NCBI GenBank assembly: GCA_001600495.1
Contig: BCKE01000004.1
Location: 607,852-671,851 of the forward strand
Length of the DNA stretch: 64,000 bases
Source: Pilasporangium apinafurcum
Taxonomy: Eukaryota > Oomycota > Peronosporomycetes > Pythiales > Pythiaceae
Reading direction: 5' to 3'
The notes beneath the pieces are model-generated. The model was given only the letters and a program-made list of their open reading frames with translations, was not told where the DNA came from and made no database searches. Shown here piece after piece: positions 33,815-43,083 of the stretch. Each line of letters begins with the position of its first letter. The stretch's first letter is position 1. The position numbers were made by a program, and so were the translations under genes.

Positions 33815-35247
33815 TTAGTTGTACTCTGGGTAAAACGTTCCTTTTTTCACGACATACTCAATAGGTGGGTCCACCATCTCGTAAACCACTTGCTCCCATT
33901 GTGTCGCACGTAGTAACACTAGATCTGCCTGCTTGCCGACTTCCACACTACCATGTGTCTTTGAGCGATTGATTGATGCTGCCGCATTGATCGTGGCACC
34001 CACGAGCGCTTCCTCTATGGTCATACCAAAGAGCACACAGGCCATGTTCATGGTCATAGGCATCGAGAGGCAGTGCGCGTTCGGGTTGAAATCGCTTCCC
34101 AATGCCACAGGGACGCCAGCGGAGATCATATCACGTGCTGGTGGATTAGGGAGCTTCAGAATGTACTTGGTGGTGGGTAACAACACTGCAAAGATCGGTT
34201 CCGGAGTATGTGCCGCCATCGCGTTGATATCATCTGCAGTCAGCATCTCACAATGAGAAATCGCGCGAGCGTGGACATTCGCAGCTAATTTGCCCGACTG
34301 CATAGGGTGAATCTCATCCCCATGGAAATTGACTTGGAGACCGGCTTGGACGCCAGCTTCGAGGATACGGGCACTGTCGTCGTGTTCAAACACACCTTTC
34401 TCACAAAACACATCGCTACATAACACGAGGCAAATGCTAAGTCAGTCCCACCTAGAATATAATGATATACGCATGGACATACATGAATTCTGGAGAGATC
34501 ACTCCTTCTTGTTTGGCCTTCATGACAGCTGGGATTTGTTTATTCACGATATCATCCGTTGCAGCAGCCGCAGTCATGCCATCAGGAACGGAATGTCCAC
34601 CCAGAAAATTCGAAACAATCTCCACGGGGTGCTTGGCATTATGCAACACACGGAGCATCTTGACTTCAGTTTCAGCATCCAGTCCGTATCCACTTTTGGC
34701 TTCGATCAACGTGGTGCCGCTGCGCAGCATGCGGTCCAGCCGCTGATGAAGAAGTCGTGCGAGTTCTTCCTCACTGCTCTTTCGAGTAGCACGTACTGTA
34801 TTGTTAATGCCACCACCGCTTGCATGGACCTAATGTATGCAAAACAAAGATAGTGAAAATGAGCTCGTACTTAGGGCAGGATCCATCAATCTCACATTTC
34901 CATACCTCCATGTAAGTAGCGCCAGCGAGTTTCATAACGAATTCATTCACACGGTTGCCGCTCCACACCGGATGCGTATGGCCATCTACAAACCCAGGTA
35001 ACACCACAAACTCGCTGCCATCCACTTCTCTCTCAAATCGCACTGGTTGTGGCTGTTGGTTCAGCCATTCCTGTACGTCCTCATTTGTGCCAACCGCAAC
35101 GATCTTGCCGTCATGATCAACAACGAGTGACGCATTTTTCAAAACCGCGACGTTTCCTTGTGCAGCGCCTGCTTTAAACGGTTCATGGTTGGCGCAGACT
35201 TGCACGATCTCACGTGCATTGACGATACGAAGACGGAAGGAGCTCAT
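33815..35247 (-). CDS. hutI: Imidazolonepropionase (histidine degradation, step 3)
   Basis: Three exons, 35247-34906, 34829-34483 and 34415-33815, 429 aa. An amidohydrolase-fold enzyme: the N-terminal metal motif VLPGFVDGHTHPVWSGNR, then IEAKSGYGLDAETEVKML, NFHGDEIHPMQSG, HCEMLTADDI, and SDFNPNAHCLSMPMTMNMAC with the metal Asp. It hydrolyses 4-imidazolone-5-propanoate to N-formimino-L-glutamate. It is divergent from the HutF/M20 fusion gene, which would act on its product, with 243 bases between the two starts; this arrangement implies coordinated expression. Confidence 0.95.
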
Positions 35248-35490
35248 GTTATGTTATGCTGGTGCGGCTGAGAGTCAATGAAGCTCTTGAGTGTGCGGTT
35301 GAAGTTGCGATCAATGATCGTGGAATGAAGAGCTCCGCTAGTCATTGGAGCATAGGATGGGATGGTAATCCTCCAGTTTACCACGCCTGTTTACCATCGC
35401 GGCTGTTTACCATGGAGGTTTACAGCGTAACCTCCGTGTAACCCAACGATGCACCTCCTCCTTCAACTTACGAGGACCATCATCACATAG
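35248..35490. promoter_or_regulatory. Divergent promoter between hutI and the HutF-M20 fusion gene, with repeated GTTTACCA elements
   Basis: Three exact GTTTACCA octamers lie at 35376-35383, 35389-35396 and 35405-35412, followed by GTTTACA at 35418-35424 (start-to-start spacing 13, 16, 13). The last one is part of a perfect 7-bp inverted repeat, GGAGGTT at 35414-35420 and AACCTCC at 35429-35435. They lie nearer the fusion gene. This looks like clustered transcription-factor sites; no known factor is assigned. Confidence 0.5.
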
Positions 35491-38400
35491 ATGGCTCATT
35501 TGCGGATTTGTATGCGTTGGCGCATCGGTAAGAACGTTTGGCGGCAGCAGCATCTTCATCACTACCATCAATCGGCTTCTTTTCTACGTGGTAATCCTTT
35601 CTTCACTACACTAACTACACGTGGTCTCCAAACATCCTGCTCCTCAGTACACGCAATGGACCAACTTCTCAATAAGCACCATGGCGAAGCGTACACGCTG
35701 GAACCGGAACTTACATGGACTGGCGCGGGGTTTGAAAAGAACATCTGTGTGCATGTCAATGCTGACGGCAAAATTCAAAGCGTCCAACCAAAAGATACCA
35801 CAGTTTGTGCGGGTGCGGGGGGTATTGCGCTACCTGGGTATGCACTCTTGCCAGGGATGGTGAACGCGCATTCACATGCGTTCCAACGCGGGCTGCGTGG
35901 ATTGGGTGAGACCTACGCGAAGGACGCGACAGCGCAATCGAGTTTTTGGACCTGGCGAGAGGAAATGTACAAGCTCGTGGGTGGGATGACCCAGCAGCAG
36001 ATTTATGACCTCACGAAGCAGTGCTTTTCGGAGATGCTGGATGCGGGAATCACGAGTGTCGGCGAGTTCCATTACTTCCACCATGCACGACCAGAGGAAG
36101 AGCATGATGGAAAGAATCGGTTCTTTGCCTATGATGAAACGGTGTTACAGGCAGCCAAAGATGTTGGTATTCGTGTGGTGTTGCTGAACGCTTATTATGA
36201 ACACGGCGGATTCCAGCGCGCTCCCATGTCAGAATCGCAGAAACGGTTTAAAGTATCTTCCCATGACGAGTATTGGCGCCAAATGGATGCGCTGGCGAAG
36301 AAATTAGCACCGACACAGACGATTGGTGTGGTGGCACATTCCATGCGTGCCGTGGAGCTGCGCGATATTGTGCAGTTGCATGAAGAAAGCGTGCGTCGTG
36401 GACTCGTGTTCCATATTCACTTGGAAGAACAGGTAAGAGAAATGGGTTTATATCGTGTAAAGTCGAATACTGGCTTGCTAATTTGTTGGCAACTTCTTAT
36501 CTGTAGACAAAAGAAGTGGACGATTGCCAGGCTGCGAACAATGGAGAGCCCCCGATGGCGCTGCTGTTGAAGAATCTCAAGATCGATGAGAAGTTTACAG
36601 CCGTGCATTGCACTTGGACAAAAGCGGATCAGCTAAAGGAGTTTGTCGAGCGCAAGGGCAACGTCTGTATTTGTCCACTCACTGAGGTGTGTTCATTAAT
36701 ACTTACGTGTTGATGATTTCGAACATCGTATTTACATATGGTTAATCATTTACCATTGGATTTATAGGGCAACCTCGGTGATGGTTTCCCATTTATTGCG
36801 AGCTGCTCGGATCGTATTTGCTTGGGAACAGATTGCAACGCCAGAATTGACATGTGTGAAGAAATGCGGTGGTTGGAATATGCCCATCGCCTTCATCAAA
36901 GCCGTCGGGGTGTTTGCACGGACTCGACCTCCGAAACAGATCTTCCACGTCTCTTGTTTCGATATGCCACGAAAAATGGCGCCGAGTCACTCAACCTCAA
37001 AGTGGTATGTCTTCAGAGTATTGTGCTTTGCGTATTGGGTTATTAGTTAACATAGTGGATATGTGAAACAGGGTGAAATTAAGGAGGGCTATGGTGCCGA
37101 TTTTGCACTGATCGACATCAATGACGAACAATTGAAGTTTGCAACCCCAGCATCACTTATGGGTGCGTTTGTTTTTGGCGCCAACGGAAGTAATGTTGTG
37201 AAAGCAACATCCGTAGATGGCAAATGGCGTCAGACGTCAAAGTCTGCCACATCTGAAGAGATTTCTGTAAAGCCAAGCGAGGGTGATGCATCAGAAACGT
37301 CAGCAGAGCATGTTCAGCAGGTGAAGGCCGCTGCTGAGTTAGCTGATCCCATGAGTGATGATGTGGTGAAACTTTCTTGTGGACTCATGAATATTCCGTC
37401 GACATCTGGTGAAGAAGAGAAGGTAGGAAGAGCGCTCCACAAATGGTTCAAAAACAGAGGGTGGCAGGTGGAACTGCAGAAGGTAGAACCTCAGCAAGAC
37501 GCCGCTGTCAAGGCAGATAGGTACGTACATTCCATCTACACTTTTTGGTCCACGTTTTTGAGACTCAGTCTGAGTTCTGTTACGGCAGATACAATATCTT
37601 TGCAAGCCGCACTGGCAATAAATCTCCACGTTTGCTATTCAATTCGCATATGGACACGGTGCCGCCTTTTCTTCCAGCTCGAACTGATGGGGAAACGCTT
37701 TATGGACGTGGCTCATGTGATGCCAAGAGTTTAATTGCAGCACAGATGATTGCTGCTCAAAAGCTGGTAGAAGCTGGCTATGAGAGCGATGTTGGACTTC
37801 TCTACGTTGTCTCTGAAGAGACGGATCATAGTGGGATGAAGAAGGCGAACGAGCTTGGATTATCACCACGTAACATGGTCGTCGGTGAACCAACTGCCCT
37901 TAAGATGATTAAAATGCAGAAAGGAATTCTGAAGATCCGATTAACTCGTCGCGGAGTTGCAGCACACAGTGGTAGGACGAAACTTTACCTTGTCTTGACG
38001 TCATCGAAGAAAAACGAAAAATTCATGCAATACGCTTTTGTTTTACCTTGTAGGTTATCCACACTTGGGAGAATCCGCGATTGACCCGTTGATTGATGTT
38101 CTCCATGATTTGAAGCATGCCGATTGGCCAAAGTCCAAGGATCTCGGTGATACGACGTTGAACGTGGGCATCATTAGTGGCGGACAAGCTGCCAATGCTC
38201 TGGCTGAACATGCTTCGGCAATGCTCATGTTCCGCTTGACAACCAATCCAGAAAGCATTTTGCAACGCGTAAAGGTTAGTTTCAGATCGCTGATCCAAGT
38301 GAGTGTTTGCATTTATTGCTCATTGTGCTCGCTGTTTACCGTGTTCTGCAGGAAATCGTCGCGAATCGTGTCGATGTGGAGCTATACTCGTCCAATGCAC

Positions 38401-38615
38401 CAGTACACCTGTCTGTGGTTGAAGGCTACGAAACTGATGTCGCATCGTTCAACACGGATATCCCATACTTTCAGTTTGATGGGAAAGCATATCTGGTCGG
38501 TGCTGGTAACATCACCGATGCACATTGCTCACGTGAATTCATCGAAATCGATGATTTGAAGACACTCGTCGATTACTACTTCACTTTGGGCAAAAAGCTT
38601 ATTGAGGACAACTAA
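35491..38615 (+). CDS. Fusion of formimidoylglutamate deiminase (HutF-type amidohydrolase) with an M20-family deacylase
   Basis: Seven exons: 35491-36432, 36507-36686, 36768-37004, 37072-37520, 37589-37971, 38054-38274 and 38352-38615; 891 aa, all phases closing. Residues 1-55 are basic and Ser/Thr-rich, like a mitochondrial presequence. The HutF domain (about 65-500) has LLPGMVNAHSHAFQRGLRG, VGEFHYFHH, VFHIHLEEQTKEVDDC and LGTDCNARIDMCEEMRWLEY. A Ser/Glu-rich linker leads to an M20 domain (about 560-890) with metal ligands in LLFNSHMDTVPP, LYGRGSCDAKS, VVSEETDHSG, VVGEPTALK and a terminal DAHCSREF. The linker and both domain edges are in one exon (37072-37520), so this is a true fusion. HutF makes N-formylglutamate and ammonia; the M20 half could be a deformylase (inference). 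Confidence 0.9.
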
Positions 38616-38706: not shown

Positions 38707-41022
38707 TCATGTAGCACCAAACTGGGCAGCTTCTAAGTCAAACAAAATTGGATCTAAATTCGCCCATTCAGCACGCCACTCAATTGTCTGCGTGCCAAAG
38801 TTGACACCAATGAACTCTTGATATTCACTGAGCCCTCTAAGCGGTCCCAGTTCGAACTTGCCAGCTTTATGATCATCTGAAATATCTTTAGTATGAGGAT
38901 CAGCTTCTTTTGTTCGCAACAAGGCGTGGACATATGCTTGCGCTAACTTTCGCTGCTCAATCGTTTCGTCATCTTCAATTTCTTGGAAAACCGGTCGGTA
39001 TGCTCGAGACCATAAGTGGTAGACAACTGCTTCCGTTGGCGCGAAAAAATCCCACCCTGAGGTCCACAGGCGAGCGCTCATACTCGCTTCTTCTCCAAAG
39101 AATAGAAACCGCAAAGAATCGTCGTATGGCACCTCCTGGATGACTTGCGCTGACGAAAATGCACATCCCGCTGCCCAAAAAAGTGAAGGGTGCGGACTGT
39201 GTCAATCACAGAACGAAGTAAAATGTCAGCATCATCAGATGACAGCGACTAATACTCTCATTGTAGCAATTCAACACATACCTAGTCCGTTTTTGCTTGA
39301 GCCTTTTACTCACTTGCCGCAGAATTCCATTAGAATCAAAATGTGAAGCACATAGAATAGTGGGTCTGGTATCATTTGGAATCTGTAACAGTACAAGATG
39401 AGCACATGAGGATATTCGTAGTATTAATCAGCAGCAATGTGTTAAACTGCTGAGGAGACTCACATTATTGGGCAGGGTATACCCCAGTGGATACGTCGTC
39501 AGGATGGGCTTTGGACTAGGACACTTTTTCAGCTGGTCGAGGAGAAAGACATCCCATCCTCGTCGGAATCGCATGTGGCTATCGATTTGCAGATAGTACT
39601 GCTCCCCGTGCCAAAGCTTTTGAGCATGCGCGCGTGCGACGCATGGTCCCGCTGCATGACGATAGTCCACAAAATATACGCGAACTTTATCTTGCGGATA
39701 TTTGTCATGTAAATAGCGTCGGGTATCATCGCTTTCGTTAGATTGAAGGCATACGCCGACAGTAATTCGCCCAGGAAACATAGCTTTTGATAGCAAATCA
39801 TCGATGGTATGGCGGCATTCAGAGTCTCGGTAACTTGGTATCGCTACAAATATAGTTTCAGGTATGGCTATGACATCCAGAGATGTAATAGAGAGCGGTG
39901 GAGGGCTTGTAGGTGTCGAAGATGGTGGTGTTGAGACTGAAGATACCGTTGCCGACGCTACAGACTCGTGTTTTATCTTTCCGTAATACCAGATCGTCAA
40001 CGCCATTCGATCGTGGAACGTGGGTAAGACTTCATGCTCCACATCATAGCTCCGAAACATCACCAGCGTGTCTAGCTGTGGCGCGATGTCCCAATGACAC
40101 TGAGCATCTGACGGTAAATTACCATCTTTCACGTAGACTCGAATTTGTCCTTCGTGCTCTGGCTGCCAATTTTCATTTAGATAGTAGACACACGTGATGA
40201 GACGCGCCAAATCACTTGACGACGAAGATGACAGAAGTCCATCGGCATGCGCAGTCGAGTAAGTATCTATGTGCTTCACAAACCGACTGCCATCTCCAGG
40301 ATAGATGGCGAATTGTGTGGATGTAACGTTACGAAGATCCAAATCGGGGGACGCCTTCTTTAACCCATAAGCCAACGATTCTACTTGTTTCATGAGGTGC
40401 ACAATCGAAGGATGCAACTCACCATTGGGATTGTTAAGGTCATTTGGTCGTTGCAGCCAGCAGATACGATCGCCACGCACAGCTCGTTCATTCCGGAGTG
40501 ATTCGCCATGACCAACTTTTGCTTCGTGTAGTTCTTTTGTTTGCGCTAACTCCAATAAGGCATCCCGGACGGCTACTGCTTGATCTACACCAAGGAAATT
40601 ATTCTTTACGACAAAACCTGGTGAGTCTGGATGCTTCAACACTGACCAACACGACACAACACTAGGTCAATTACAATAACCAGAGACAAACATGAGCTTC
40701 TTTGCTATATATACCTACCAAAAAGATCAGAAGGATTAAGCTTCGGCTTCACTACTACACTCTTAGTGTCCACTGTTGTAGTAGGTGCAGTTGATCTCGC
40801 CACTTGATTTGAAGAAAGGAGAACACTCTCTTTTGTCACTGCTGATTTATTTTCTGTGTGCTCTTCTTCTATCTTCGTCTGTTTACCATCAGCAACAGTT
40901 GCAACTGTAGAGGTAACTGGCAGTTTTTCACCAAGCGACGCCTCCACAAGCGCCTGCAACTGCGGTGACAGCGCATTCAACAGCGTCTTTGCTTCCATTT
41001 GTTGTTGCATTTCTCTGACCAA
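38707..41022 (-). CDS. Prolyl 4-hydroxylase / GlcNAc-transferase fusion (Skp1-modifying type)
   Basis: Exons 41022-40719, 40641-39464, 39382-39282 and 39196-38707, 690 aa. Residues about 1-100 are variable. The next about 220 form a 2OG-Fe(II) prolyl hydroxylase (SRFVKHIDTYS gives HxD, ITCVYYLNENW, VEHEVLPTFHDRMALTIWYY gives the distal His and the Arg). After a Ser/Pro/Thr linker comes a glycosyltransferase of the GlcNAc/Gnt1 class (IFVAIPSYRDSECRHTIDDL, ITVGVCLQSN, YYLQIDSHMRFRRGWD with a DxD-like DSH, and AAGCAFSSAQVIQEVPYDD). In protists these two activities hydroxylate a Skp1 proline and cap it with GlcNAc in an oxygen-sensing pathway; that substrate is inferred from family knowledge. Confidence 0.88.
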
Positions 41023-41208
41023 TTCGCCAATTCACCAGTATCGGCACCTATCAAAAAAATGGATTCTGATAATCTGAGTCTGATCTTTTCTTCTGATAAT
41101 TTGTGAGGATGGGTCCATTTTATACCGGTTTTTGTACCGACACAACTCTTAGACAGTTGAAGAAAATTGAAGAGCTACACATCACACCGCCGGGAGAAAC
41201 GTGGGAAG

Positions 41209-43083
41209 ATGTTGCGGAAGAGCGTGGGCGATGTGGTGGTCATCGGCGCGGGCGTGGCAGGATGCTCAGCTTTCTACAATCTCGCTCGATTGAACCGTTC
41301 CACGAAGAATTTCAAGCCGATCTTGGTGGACGCACTTCCTCCATTGTCGCTCACGAGCGCGAATGGATCGTTCAGTTATCGCGACTGGTTTCCGAGCGAC
41401 GAAGAAGCGCCTATGCGCGCTTTGGTCGTGCAATCTATCGATGAACTAGACAAAATCTCGAAAAAAACGAATAATATGATCGGATTGAATCGCAATGGGT
41501 ATTTATTCGTGACGCGCGATCCCGTGAAAGTAGAGCATTTCAAGAAGATGGCGATGTTAATGAGCAACAAAGGCGGTGGTGCGTTGCGTGTTTATGAAGA
41601 AGGAGACCGCCAAGCGCTTGATAGCTATCGCTTCTCGACCGAGCAGATTCAATATGATCTGGATGGGTCGGATTTGCTGCTTGGAATTGAGAATATTGCG
41701 CGAGTGTTCCCGTCACTTAAGGACTCGAAAGCGATTGCTGCTCTGCATGTACGACGATGTGGATCGATGAATCCGTTCAAGCTGGTGAGACAACAAGTTT
41801 ATAAAAAAAACGAGCTGCTTGATCGGTGGAATTAGAATCGAACTGACGATATATTGTATACTGGGGATGGTGACAAAGTAGGGCAACTATGAACTCACGA
41901 AAGCCGTCGAGTACTGTCCCCATGCGCAAATCCTTCGTGGCAAAGTCACAGATATATTTGCAGTGGGAGGAAAGATCAGTGGAGTCAAAGTCGAGTCGGA
42001 TCAGGGTGAATCCCATCACATATCTACACCACATGTTGTATTCGCAACAGGTCCTCTTTTTGAGAAGACAATGGAGATTCTCAAAAAGCGTAACCTTTCA
42101 AGCTTTGATGTGCCGATCATCAATGAATTGCATTGTCGTGCACTTTTTGACGACCCCAATCAAGTGATGCCACCGACTACACCGCTCACATTCGATTCGG
42201 ATCATTGTGGTAAACTACCGGTAGGCTTAACCTTGCCAAGCGAAGGACATATGGATTTTTGAATGAGGAGCCTCACATCCTTACTTCTGTCACTAGTTTA
42301 CAGACGAAGAGCGCAAGAAGATAGCTGCGAACCCTTTGGCGTCGCGAATGCTCGAAGAATATCCATCTGGTACAACCGTTTTTACGTTGTGAAACGGCCA
42401 TGGTAAGGTCTTTGATCTTTCACGTGTTGTTGGGTACCCCTGTAGGTGTACACGCTCGACCGTACTTGGATTCCAAGATGATGGCAGTGTGGACATATGA
42501 TATAGAGCCTGTACCACCCCATTACCCAGTGGATGATGTGCTGGACAACAAGTATGATTTGCGATTGATTACGATGCATATTCGATATAGGATCCGCTAG
42601 ATAATCCCTCACTTGTTTGCATCTTGTGCAACAGTTTTCCTGAAACATGTGTTCGCGGTCTCATGAAGTTGTTTCCTCAACTACGATCGTATCTCGACGA
42701 CCCACAAGTTCGTAGCTCTTTCAAGGTAAACGGCGGCTATTATTGCAAGACCATGGACAATATGCCCATGATTGGACCTGCTCCCAGCACTGTCGATGGC
42801 GTCTTCTTGCAATCTGCCATGTCAGGAGTGGGACTCATGTACGTTGATCTAGACAAACAAGCTCTAGAGAATTTCTATGCATTCTAACGATGCATTTCAC
42901 TTGTTCTAATGGCATAGGTCTAGTGGTGCGTCCGGACAGCTTCTGGCTGCTCGTGTAATGGGCGTCGAACCCGAAGGGAAACGACTCGTTGAATACGCAG
43001 ATACCTTTCTTCCTATCCGCTTCGAAGATAAAGCATACGTAGCGTCTCTCGCTGCTGGCCGCAGCCGTATGGGTCAAGTATAA
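41209..43083 (+). CDS. FAD-dependent oxidoreductase (DAO family, FOXRED1/dimethylglycine-dehydrogenase-like)
   Basis: Six exons: 41209-41784, 41882-42209, 42304-42369, 42446-42551, 42635-42838 and 42918-43083, 481 aa. The N-terminal Rossmann motif is VVVIGAGVAGCSAFYNLAR. The C-terminal half has NGGYYCKTMDNMPMIGP and SAMSGVGLM followed by SSGASGQLLAARVMG, the usual FAD-contact end of DAO-fold enzymes. The substrate is probably a secondary or N-methyl amino acid, or it is an assembly factor, but neither can be settled here. The frame is open upstream of the ATG, so a longer N-terminus through an upstream exon is possible. Splice choice between exons 4 and 5 is the least certain. Confidence 0.82.

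What the first reader, a model, noticed from the sequence alone, without database searches (positions are those of the whole stretch)
33815..38615. Two-gene histidine-degradation unit in which HutF is fused to an M20 deacylase
Seen: a divergent pair encoding HutI (HutI motifs and metal ligands intact) and an 891-aa protein whose N-terminal half has the HutF motifs (NAHSHAFQRG, HIHLEEQTKEVDDC, LGTDCNARID) and whose C-terminal half has a complete set of M20 metal ligands (SHMDT, GSCDAKS, SEET, GEPT, DAHCSR). The junction is inside one exon. Known: HutF converts formimidoylglutamate to N-formylglutamate and ammonia, which bacteria then hydrolyse with HutG. Inference: the M20 domain replaces HutG as an N-formylglutamate deformylase, so one polypeptide would perform both last steps. 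I know of no described eukaryotic enzyme of this build.
Basis: partly seen in the sequence, partly recalled or inferred. Interest (0 to 1): 0.8.

Follow-up and report, generated by a model that had tools for sequence, protein, structure and literature searches.

The report
HutF–M20 fused histidine-degradation enzyme
In this oomycete (water mould) the enzyme for the second-last step of histidine breakdown is welded to a metal-dependent deacylase that most likely does the last step, replacing the missing bacterial enzyme HutG, and another protist lineage seems to have solved the same problem by welding on a deformylase.

Summary
A seven-exon gene (35491/35656-38615, +) encodes an 836-891 aa protein: a HutF-type domain plus a complete M20 deacylase, joined inside one open exon; HutI is divergent beside it. 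The fusion is listed for five oomycete genera, Sphaeroforma and Amoebophrya. The genome has HutH and HutU but no detectable HutG (PF05013) or FTCD, so something must deformylate N-formylglutamate. The M20 half belongs to its own clade; some of its nearest outside relatives sit in lysine (dap) operons. ArgJ is present and published work gives oomycetes a DapL lysine route, so ArgE or DapE roles are not needed. In one bacterial class, 6 of 93 genomes carry this clade and the same 6 carry HutF (threshold 1e-50); 5 of the 6 lack HutG. Strongest new evidence: a second HutF fusion, to a peptide-deformylase domain, in the chrysophyte Paraphysomonas and in metagenomes. Against: the bacterial clade genes are not in hut operons, 3 further clade genomes lack HutF, and the HutG contrast weakens under a stricter model.

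The parts
35491..38615 (+). HutF-M20 fusion gene (891 aa from ATG 35491; 836 aa from ATG 35656)
   Evidence: splice model and translation; Pfam/NCBIfam
35491..35655 (+). 55-residue N-terminal extension, Arg-rich and without Asp/Glu; possible mitochondrial presequence (inferred)
   Evidence: sequence; similar Arg-rich extensions in P0003, P0004, P0008, P0013
35656..37233 (+). formimidoylglutamate deiminase (HutF-type) domain, about residues 16-452, exons 1-4 (end approximate)
   Evidence: TIGR02022 371 bits; PDB 3mdu N-formimino-L-glutamate iminohydrolase E 2e-68
37072..37520 (+). exon holding the HutF/M20 junction and the variable linker
   Evidence: open in one frame; linker of low confidence in the orthologue model (residues 465-478 of P0001)
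37360..38615 (+). M20 deacylase domain with dimerisation insert (start approximate)
   Evidence: PF01546 and PF07687; H79, D103, E135/E136, E159, H318 of the domain invariant in 24 aligned sequences, (their role as metal and catalytic residues is recalled from the M20 family)
33815..35247 (-). HutI, imidazolonepropionase, three exons
   Evidence: TIGR01224 406 bits, cut-off 298
35248..35655 (.). shared stretch between the divergent HutI and HutF-M20 starts (243 bp if ATG 35491 is the start); candidate common promoter (inferred)
   Evidence: coordinates

Best explanation
The gene encodes a bifunctional enzyme for the last two steps of histidine degradation. The N-terminal amidohydrolase half (HutF type) hydrolyses N-formimidoyl-L-glutamate to N-formyl-L-glutamate and ammonia. 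The C-terminal M20 half hydrolyses N-formyl-L-glutamate to L-glutamate and formate, doing the job of HutG. Shown here: both halves, their active-site motifs, the spread of the fusion, the earlier pathway enzymes, and the absence of detectable HutG and FTCD. Inferred: the substrates of both halves, of the M20 half above all, and any coupling of the two steps in one chain.
For: (1) The fusion is listed for Globisporangium, Pythium, Phytophthora, Lagenidium and Hyaloperonospora, and for Sphaeroforma arctica and Amoebophrya; one Amoebophrya protein (P0028) bears an MMETSP transcriptome id. (2) Own genome: HutH 670.6 bits over 539, HutU 426.7 over 375, HutI over cut-off; no PF05013, no FTCD; the one arginase-family match passes the arginase cut-off. 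(3) M20 residues invariant in 24 clade sequences; all eight motifs of both halves in 20 of 26 fusions. (4) HutF is separately fused to a peptide-deformylase domain: 17 of the 120 rows listed; 17 of 18 examined keep all three deformylase motifs; one bears an MMETSP id of Paraphysomonas. In the HutF tree that group is sister to the oomycete fusions under a fork of support 83. (5) P0049 joins HutF to an ArgE/DapE-family deacylase of another subfamily. (6) In one bacterial class the M20 clade and HutF occur in the same 6 of 93 genomes and neither in the other 87 at E 1e-50; 5 of the 6 have no PF05013 over cut-off. (7) The nearest M20s outside the clade have dapA, dapB or dapD neighbours in 3 of 7 loci looked at; oomycetes make lysine with a DapB-DapL fusion (PMC2705460, passages) and this genome has ArgJ, so neither DapE nor ArgE is needed.
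Against: No biochemical test. The genome searches read six frames without introns in an assembly of 136 contigs, so absence of HutG and FTCD is absence at that sensitivity. None of the 7 bacterial clade loci has a HutF, HutI, HAL or urocanase homologue in the stretch held, at most 10 kb a side. Three of those 7 genomes have the M20 but no HutF over cut-off (G001, G005, G006), and G005 and G006 have a PF05013 protein. The co-occurrence rests on related genomes of one class, and the HutF matches of the six (E 1e-59 to 1.4e-51) lie just inside the 1e-50 threshold, so a more distant HutF in the other 87 could have been missed. The HutG contrast (PF05013 in 8 of 9 HutF genomes without the clade, in 1 of 6 with it) is clean only by Pfam: by the TIGR02017 cut-off just 1 of those 8 qualifies. 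The window's HutF half is under the TIGR02022 cut-off. M20 stretches on contig C15, one of them scanned and aminoacylase-1-like, could deformylate instead.
Confidence: 0.75

Rival explanations
1. The M20 half is an acetylornithine deacetylase (ArgE) or another N-acyl-amino-acid deacylase joined to HutF by chance or for co-regulation, with no role in histidine breakdown.
For: Best PDB sequence match is E. coli acetylornithine deacetylase, 4e-18; some sources name relatives 'acetylornithine deacetylase'; bacterial clade genes are not in hut operons.
Against: Under the ArgE equivalog cut-off, 123.9 vs 297.7 bits. The genome has ArgJ, which makes ArgE dispensable (recalled). Clade members occur in nematodes, which are not known to make arginine (recalled). 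HutF bears a deformylase domain instead in another lineage.
Confidence: 0.1
2. The M20 half is a DapE-type desuccinylase of lysine biosynthesis.
For: Some of the nearest relatives outside the clade have dap neighbours, and DapE structures match.
Against: Oomycetes use a DapB-DapL fusion, which by-passes DapE (PMC2705460, passages; the by-pass is recalled). The dapE cut-offs shown are not met. Clade members also occur in nematodes, which are not known to make lysine (recalled).
Confidence: 0.04
3. The M20 half acts on N-formylglutamate only as a side activity or acts directly on formimidoylglutamate; another enzyme (aminoacylase-1, or a mitochondrial peptide deformylase) does the main deformylation.
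For: An aminoacylase-1-like M20 stretch exists in the genome, a partial frame of 175 bits under its cut-off of 338.6.
Against: Does not explain why the fusion and its M20 motifs are kept in oomycetes, Sphaeroforma and Amoebophrya.
Confidence: 0.09
4. Gene-model artefact: two adjacent genes read as one.
For: In Nothophytophthora the two halves are annotated as neighbouring gene models (P0019/P0085 and P0020/P0084 by their serial gene numbers).
Against: Junction inside one open exon; same fusion in independent annotations and in a protein with a transcriptome id, P0028.
Confidence: 0.02

Closest known systems
HutF, N-formimino-L-glutamate iminohydrolase of Pseudomonas aeruginosa (PDB 3mdu, 3mdw, 4rdv)
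   Different: Bacterial HutF is a single-domain protein and works with a separate HutG (recalled).
HutG, N-formylglutamate deformylase (PF05013 / TIGR02017)
   Same: Proposed same reaction.
   Different: Unrelated family; none found in this genome.
M20 deacylases ArgE / DapE / LysK (PDB 7rsf, 5vo3, 5xoy)
   Same: Fold, invariant ligand positions and dimerisation insert.
   Different: Separate clade; under every ArgE, DapE and LysK cut-off shown; fused to HutF.
FTCD (formimidoyltransferase-cyclodeaminase) of animals
   Same: Also a two-domain enzyme that disposes of formimidoylglutamate (recalled).
   Different: Uses tetrahydrofolate (recalled); not detected here (PF02971).
Oomycete multidomain enzymes surveyed by Morris et al. 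2009 (PMC2705460; outline, abstract and passages seen)
   Same: Oomycetes are reported to have many novel fusions of pathway enzymes, such as DapB-DapL.
   Different: The main text has no match to amidohydrolase, M20, formimino, deiminase or deacetylase. Whether this protein is in the supplementary material on the 273 proteins could not be checked.

Membership tests
HutF (formimidoylglutamate deiminase) | amidohydrolase metal and substrate motifs (HSHAFQ, EFHY, HSxRA, HxHxEEQ, H, G(T/S)D) | tested here: met
   alignment to 3mdu; invariant columns across 14 fusions, (roles recalled)
HutF (formimidoylglutamate deiminase) | NCBIfam TIGR02022 curated cut-off 413.05 bits | tested here: not met
   371 bits, the best family by score. 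NCBIfam is made for bacteria and archaea. I therefore call it a HutF-type domain, not a member by cut-off.
HutF (formimidoylglutamate deiminase) | activity on formimidoylglutamate | not testable with these tools
   needs assay
M20 peptidase/deacylase | PF01546 and PF07687 gathering scores | tested here: met
   69.5 over 24.6 and 73.2 over 21
M20 peptidase/deacylase | complete metal-ligand and catalytic set | tested here: met
   invariant columns, 20 of 26 fusions have all eight motifs of both halves, 6 lack one or two
Acetylornithine deacetylase ArgE (TIGR01892) | equivalog cut-off 297.7 bits | tested here: not met
   123.9 bits
DapE (TIGR01900 and others) | equivalog cut-offs | tested here: not met
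   TIGR01900 91 bits vs 304.2, NF009557 94.3 vs 284; TIGR01246 not among the best 25 shown
HutG (PF05013) | FGase domain | tested here: not met
   no match in the own genome nor in the protein; the M20 is not this family, it is proposed to do the same work
N-formylglutamate deformylase by function | hydrolysis of N-formyl-L-glutamate | not testable with these tools
   needs assay
HutI (TIGR01224) | equivalog cut-off 298.15 bits | tested here: met
   406.2 bits

The most novel reading that the evidence does not exclude
A further family of N-formylglutamate deformylase exists, an M20 clade found in bacteria (standalone) and eukaryotes (standalone or fused to HutF). Eukaryotes that degrade histidine without folate have recruited unrelated deformylases, M20 in oomycetes, Sphaeroforma and Amoebophrya and a peptide-deformylase homologue in at least one chrysophyte, onto the same HutF chain: two convergent bifunctional enzymes for the same pair of reactions.
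Probability: 0.6. Interest if true: 0.72.

Novelty: new variant of a known kind. Interest (0 to 1): 0.62.

Why it matters
It would fill the missing last step of histidine breakdown in an oomycete whose genome shows neither the animal (folate) enzyme nor bacterial HutG. It would name a substrate for an M20 clade whose members are called 'acetylornithine deacetylase' or 'carboxypeptidase' in the databases. It would also show one pathway enzyme with exchangeable, unrelated partner domains, a clear case of non-orthologous replacement read out by gene fusion. All of it can be tested with two simple enzyme assays.

Tried and rejected
Expected hut operon linkage of the standalone bacterial M20 genes: not found in the 7 clade loci (blastp at 1e-20 against HutF, HutI, HAL and urocanase of this genome; Pfam on neighbours of 5 of the 7). 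Neighbours of HutF in four of the clade genomes were read by eye only, and no M20 or hut partner was recognised.

Tried to sharpen the HutG contrast with TIGR02017: it did not help. Seven of the eight outgroup candidates and the proteins of G007, G005 and G006 are all under its cut-off, so the contrast stays Pfam-level and suggestive. The G007 gene lies directly after a gamma-glutamyltransferase-like frame and has the lowest score of the full-length ones (86.6; the partial one of G009 has 87.6).

Number of fusion events: open. The M20 tree (66 rows picked by hand) joins all fused rows, with P0155, which begins without HutF, at a moderate 87/86. The drawn HutF tree puts the deformylase fusions beside the oomycetes and the Sphaeroforma/Amoebophrya fusions elsewhere, but its label count does not exclude one origin of the M20 fusions. 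Rows dropped: aligned stretches of 280 aa or less (130 rows kept), stretches under 330 aa, three in four of the rows from P0241 on, and P0049 (128 kept). In one search the dap rows were not one clade: L041 joined the HutF-type side and the chytrid row P0166 the dap side.

DapE and ArgE roles were considered and set aside (see rivals). The structure model (mean pLDDT 91.6, pTM 0.61) does not fix how the two halves face each other, so channelling is not claimed.

Literature: searches listed no paper on this fusion that I recognised from titles and abstract starts; one search matched 2,786 papers by two common words and showed 15. PMC2705460 was seen as outline, abstract and passages; the other papers only as search listings. 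No supplements could be opened.
Full report
What is there. The gene at 35491/35656-38615 has seven exons with standard splice signals and reads through without a stop, 836 or 891 aa depending on the start. Its first half is an amidohydrolase whose best NCBIfam model is hutF (371 bits, under the cut-off of 413) and whose best solved relative is the P. aeruginosa N-formimino-L-glutamate iminohydrolase. Its second half is an M20 deacylase with the dimerisation insert and a complete metal and catalytic set. The change from one to the other happens inside exon 37072-37520. The extra 55 residues from ATG 35491 are Arg-rich without acidic residues, and some Phytophthora and Lagenidium orthologues begin in the same style, so a mitochondrial presequence is likely (inference). 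HutI is divergent, 243 or 408 bp away. The closest database protein is the Globisporangium ultimum orthologue at 78% identity, so the window is from an oomycete near it (inference).

How widespread. Of 82 database proteins listed, 26 have HutF-type and M20 domains in one chain. The named ones are Globisporangium, Pythium, Phytophthora, Lagenidium and Hyaloperonospora (oomycetes), Sphaeroforma arctica (an ichthyosporean, recalled) and Amoebophrya (Syndiniales), the last also with a transcriptome id. In Nothophytophthora the two halves are annotated as neighbouring gene models, and other downy mildews appear with partial models. All eight motifs examined, three of HutF and five of M20, are kept in 20 of the 26; six lack one or two (P0009, P0015, P0016, P0017, P0026, P0027). 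A 27th protein, P0049, joins HutF to an ArgE/DapE-type deacylase of a different subfamily after what looks like a frame change.

The pathway around it. The genome (36.5 Mb, 136 contigs) has a HutH over cut-off on contig C8, a HutU over cut-off on C56, and HutI and HutF-M20 on C4. It has no match to PF05013 (HutG) or to FTCD; the same searches rang in 1 of 14 control genomes each, and the same kind of six-frame search did find the intron-bearing ArgJ and HAL genes. Its single arginase-family gene passes the arginase cut-off. Of the other M20 stretches, C10 is a TIGR01891-type amidohydrolase and one on C15 is aminoacylase-1-like; the one on C17 that was scanned matched no NCBIfam model at 1e-15. 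HutF makes N-formylglutamate, so a deformylase is required; the domain welded to HutF is the obvious candidate.

A second, independent fusion. HutF is also found joined to an N-terminal peptide-deformylase domain (PF01327): 6 rows, and 17 of the 120 rows listed in a follow-up search. One bears an MMETSP id of Paraphysomonas, a chrysophyte. All three deformylase motifs are present in 17 of 18 rows; the exception, P0210, lacks the first. P0036 passes the NCBIfam subfamily model NF001159 (129.4 over 125) but not the equivalog TIGR00079 (100.1 under 103.95); P0205, which begins just before the first motif, passes neither (103.6 for NF001159). In the HutF tree this group is sister to the oomycete fusions under a fork of support 83. 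A domain of a family that takes formyl groups off amino groups, fused to the enzyme that makes N-formylglutamate, argues strongly that the partner of HutF in these chains is a deformylase.

The M20 clade. Fused and standalone eukaryotic copies (brown algae and their kin, nematodes and others) and a 35-row group of mostly unnamed proteins of about 333 aa, the named ones bacterial, form one clade of 96 rows (SH-aLRT 96), apart from some 30 rows mostly at 41-44% identity; the separation is weaker. The lower group has dapA, dapB or dapD neighbours in 3 of 7 loci examined, so at least some of them look like DapE. The 7 clade loci have no hut homologue in the stretches held, and the neighbours scanned in 5 of them are no arg, dap or hut genes.

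Phyletic pattern in bacteria. In the class of Sulfidibacter, 6 of 93 genomes have the clade M20 and exactly the same 6 have HutF; none of the 87 others has either at E 1e-50. The HutF matches of the six lie just inside that threshold (1e-59 to 1.4e-51), so more distant HutF genes elsewhere could have been missed. By simple counting the chance is 1.3e-9, but the genomes are related, so this is not a probability. Five of the six lack PF05013 over cut-off. Of the genomes of 46 of the 80 loci, 13 have HutF over cut-off, 4 of 7 with the clade and 9 of 39 without. Of those 9, 8 have PF05013. Five of the 9 are titled Myxococcales. The contrast, 1 of 6 against 8 of 9, gives 0.011 by Fisher's test, again without correction for kinship. 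Against this: G001, G005 and G006 have the clade M20 without HutF over cut-off, G005 and G006 have PF05013, and with the stricter TIGR02017 model only one of the 8 would count as HutG. So the bacterial pattern supports, but does not prove, a hut role, and the clade may not have one substrate throughout.

What it is not. ArgE: cut-off not met, ArgJ present. DapE: cut-offs shown not met, and oomycetes use a DapB-DapL fusion (PMC2705460, passages). Nematode members of the clade also speak against both, since nematodes are not known to make arginine or lysine (recalled).

Verdict. The reading as HutF plus N-formylglutamate deformylase is the best explanation, at about 0.75. It is a new variant of a known pathway rather than a new kind of system. 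I found no paper describing it in the library searched, though the supplementary material of PMC2705460 on P. sojae multidomain proteins could not be opened and may list it.

Noticed in passing
proteins P0029, P0034-P0036, P0048, P0060, P0202-P0210, P0212, P0214, P0221: Peptide-deformylase domain (PF01327) in front of HutF in the chrysophyte Paraphysomonas and in metagenome contigs; probably a second bifunctional solution to the same two steps.
   Followed up: partly
protein P0049: HutF running, apparently through a frame change, into an ArgE/DapE-family deacylase of another subfamily (PRK06915/PRK06837 type); may be two adjacent genes.
   Followed up: partly
G005, G006 (Bdellovibrionia) and G001: Carry the M20 clade but no HutF over cut-off; the substrate there is unexplained.
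   Followed up: no
own genome C3:242703-243374 (L018): Aromatic-ammonia-lyase-like stretch in one long open frame with a histidyl-tRNA-synthetase-like later part; an odd pairing, possibly another fusion.
   Followed up: no
window 38707-40666 and 41161-42262: Glycosyltransferase-like frames on the minus strand and a flavin-oxidoreductase-like frame on the plus strand next to the fusion (read by eye).
   Followed up: no
proteins P0152, P0153, P0157, P0159, P0163, P0174, P0183, P0184: Nematodes, including parasitic ones, hold standalone members of this M20 clade of unknown function.
   Followed up: no
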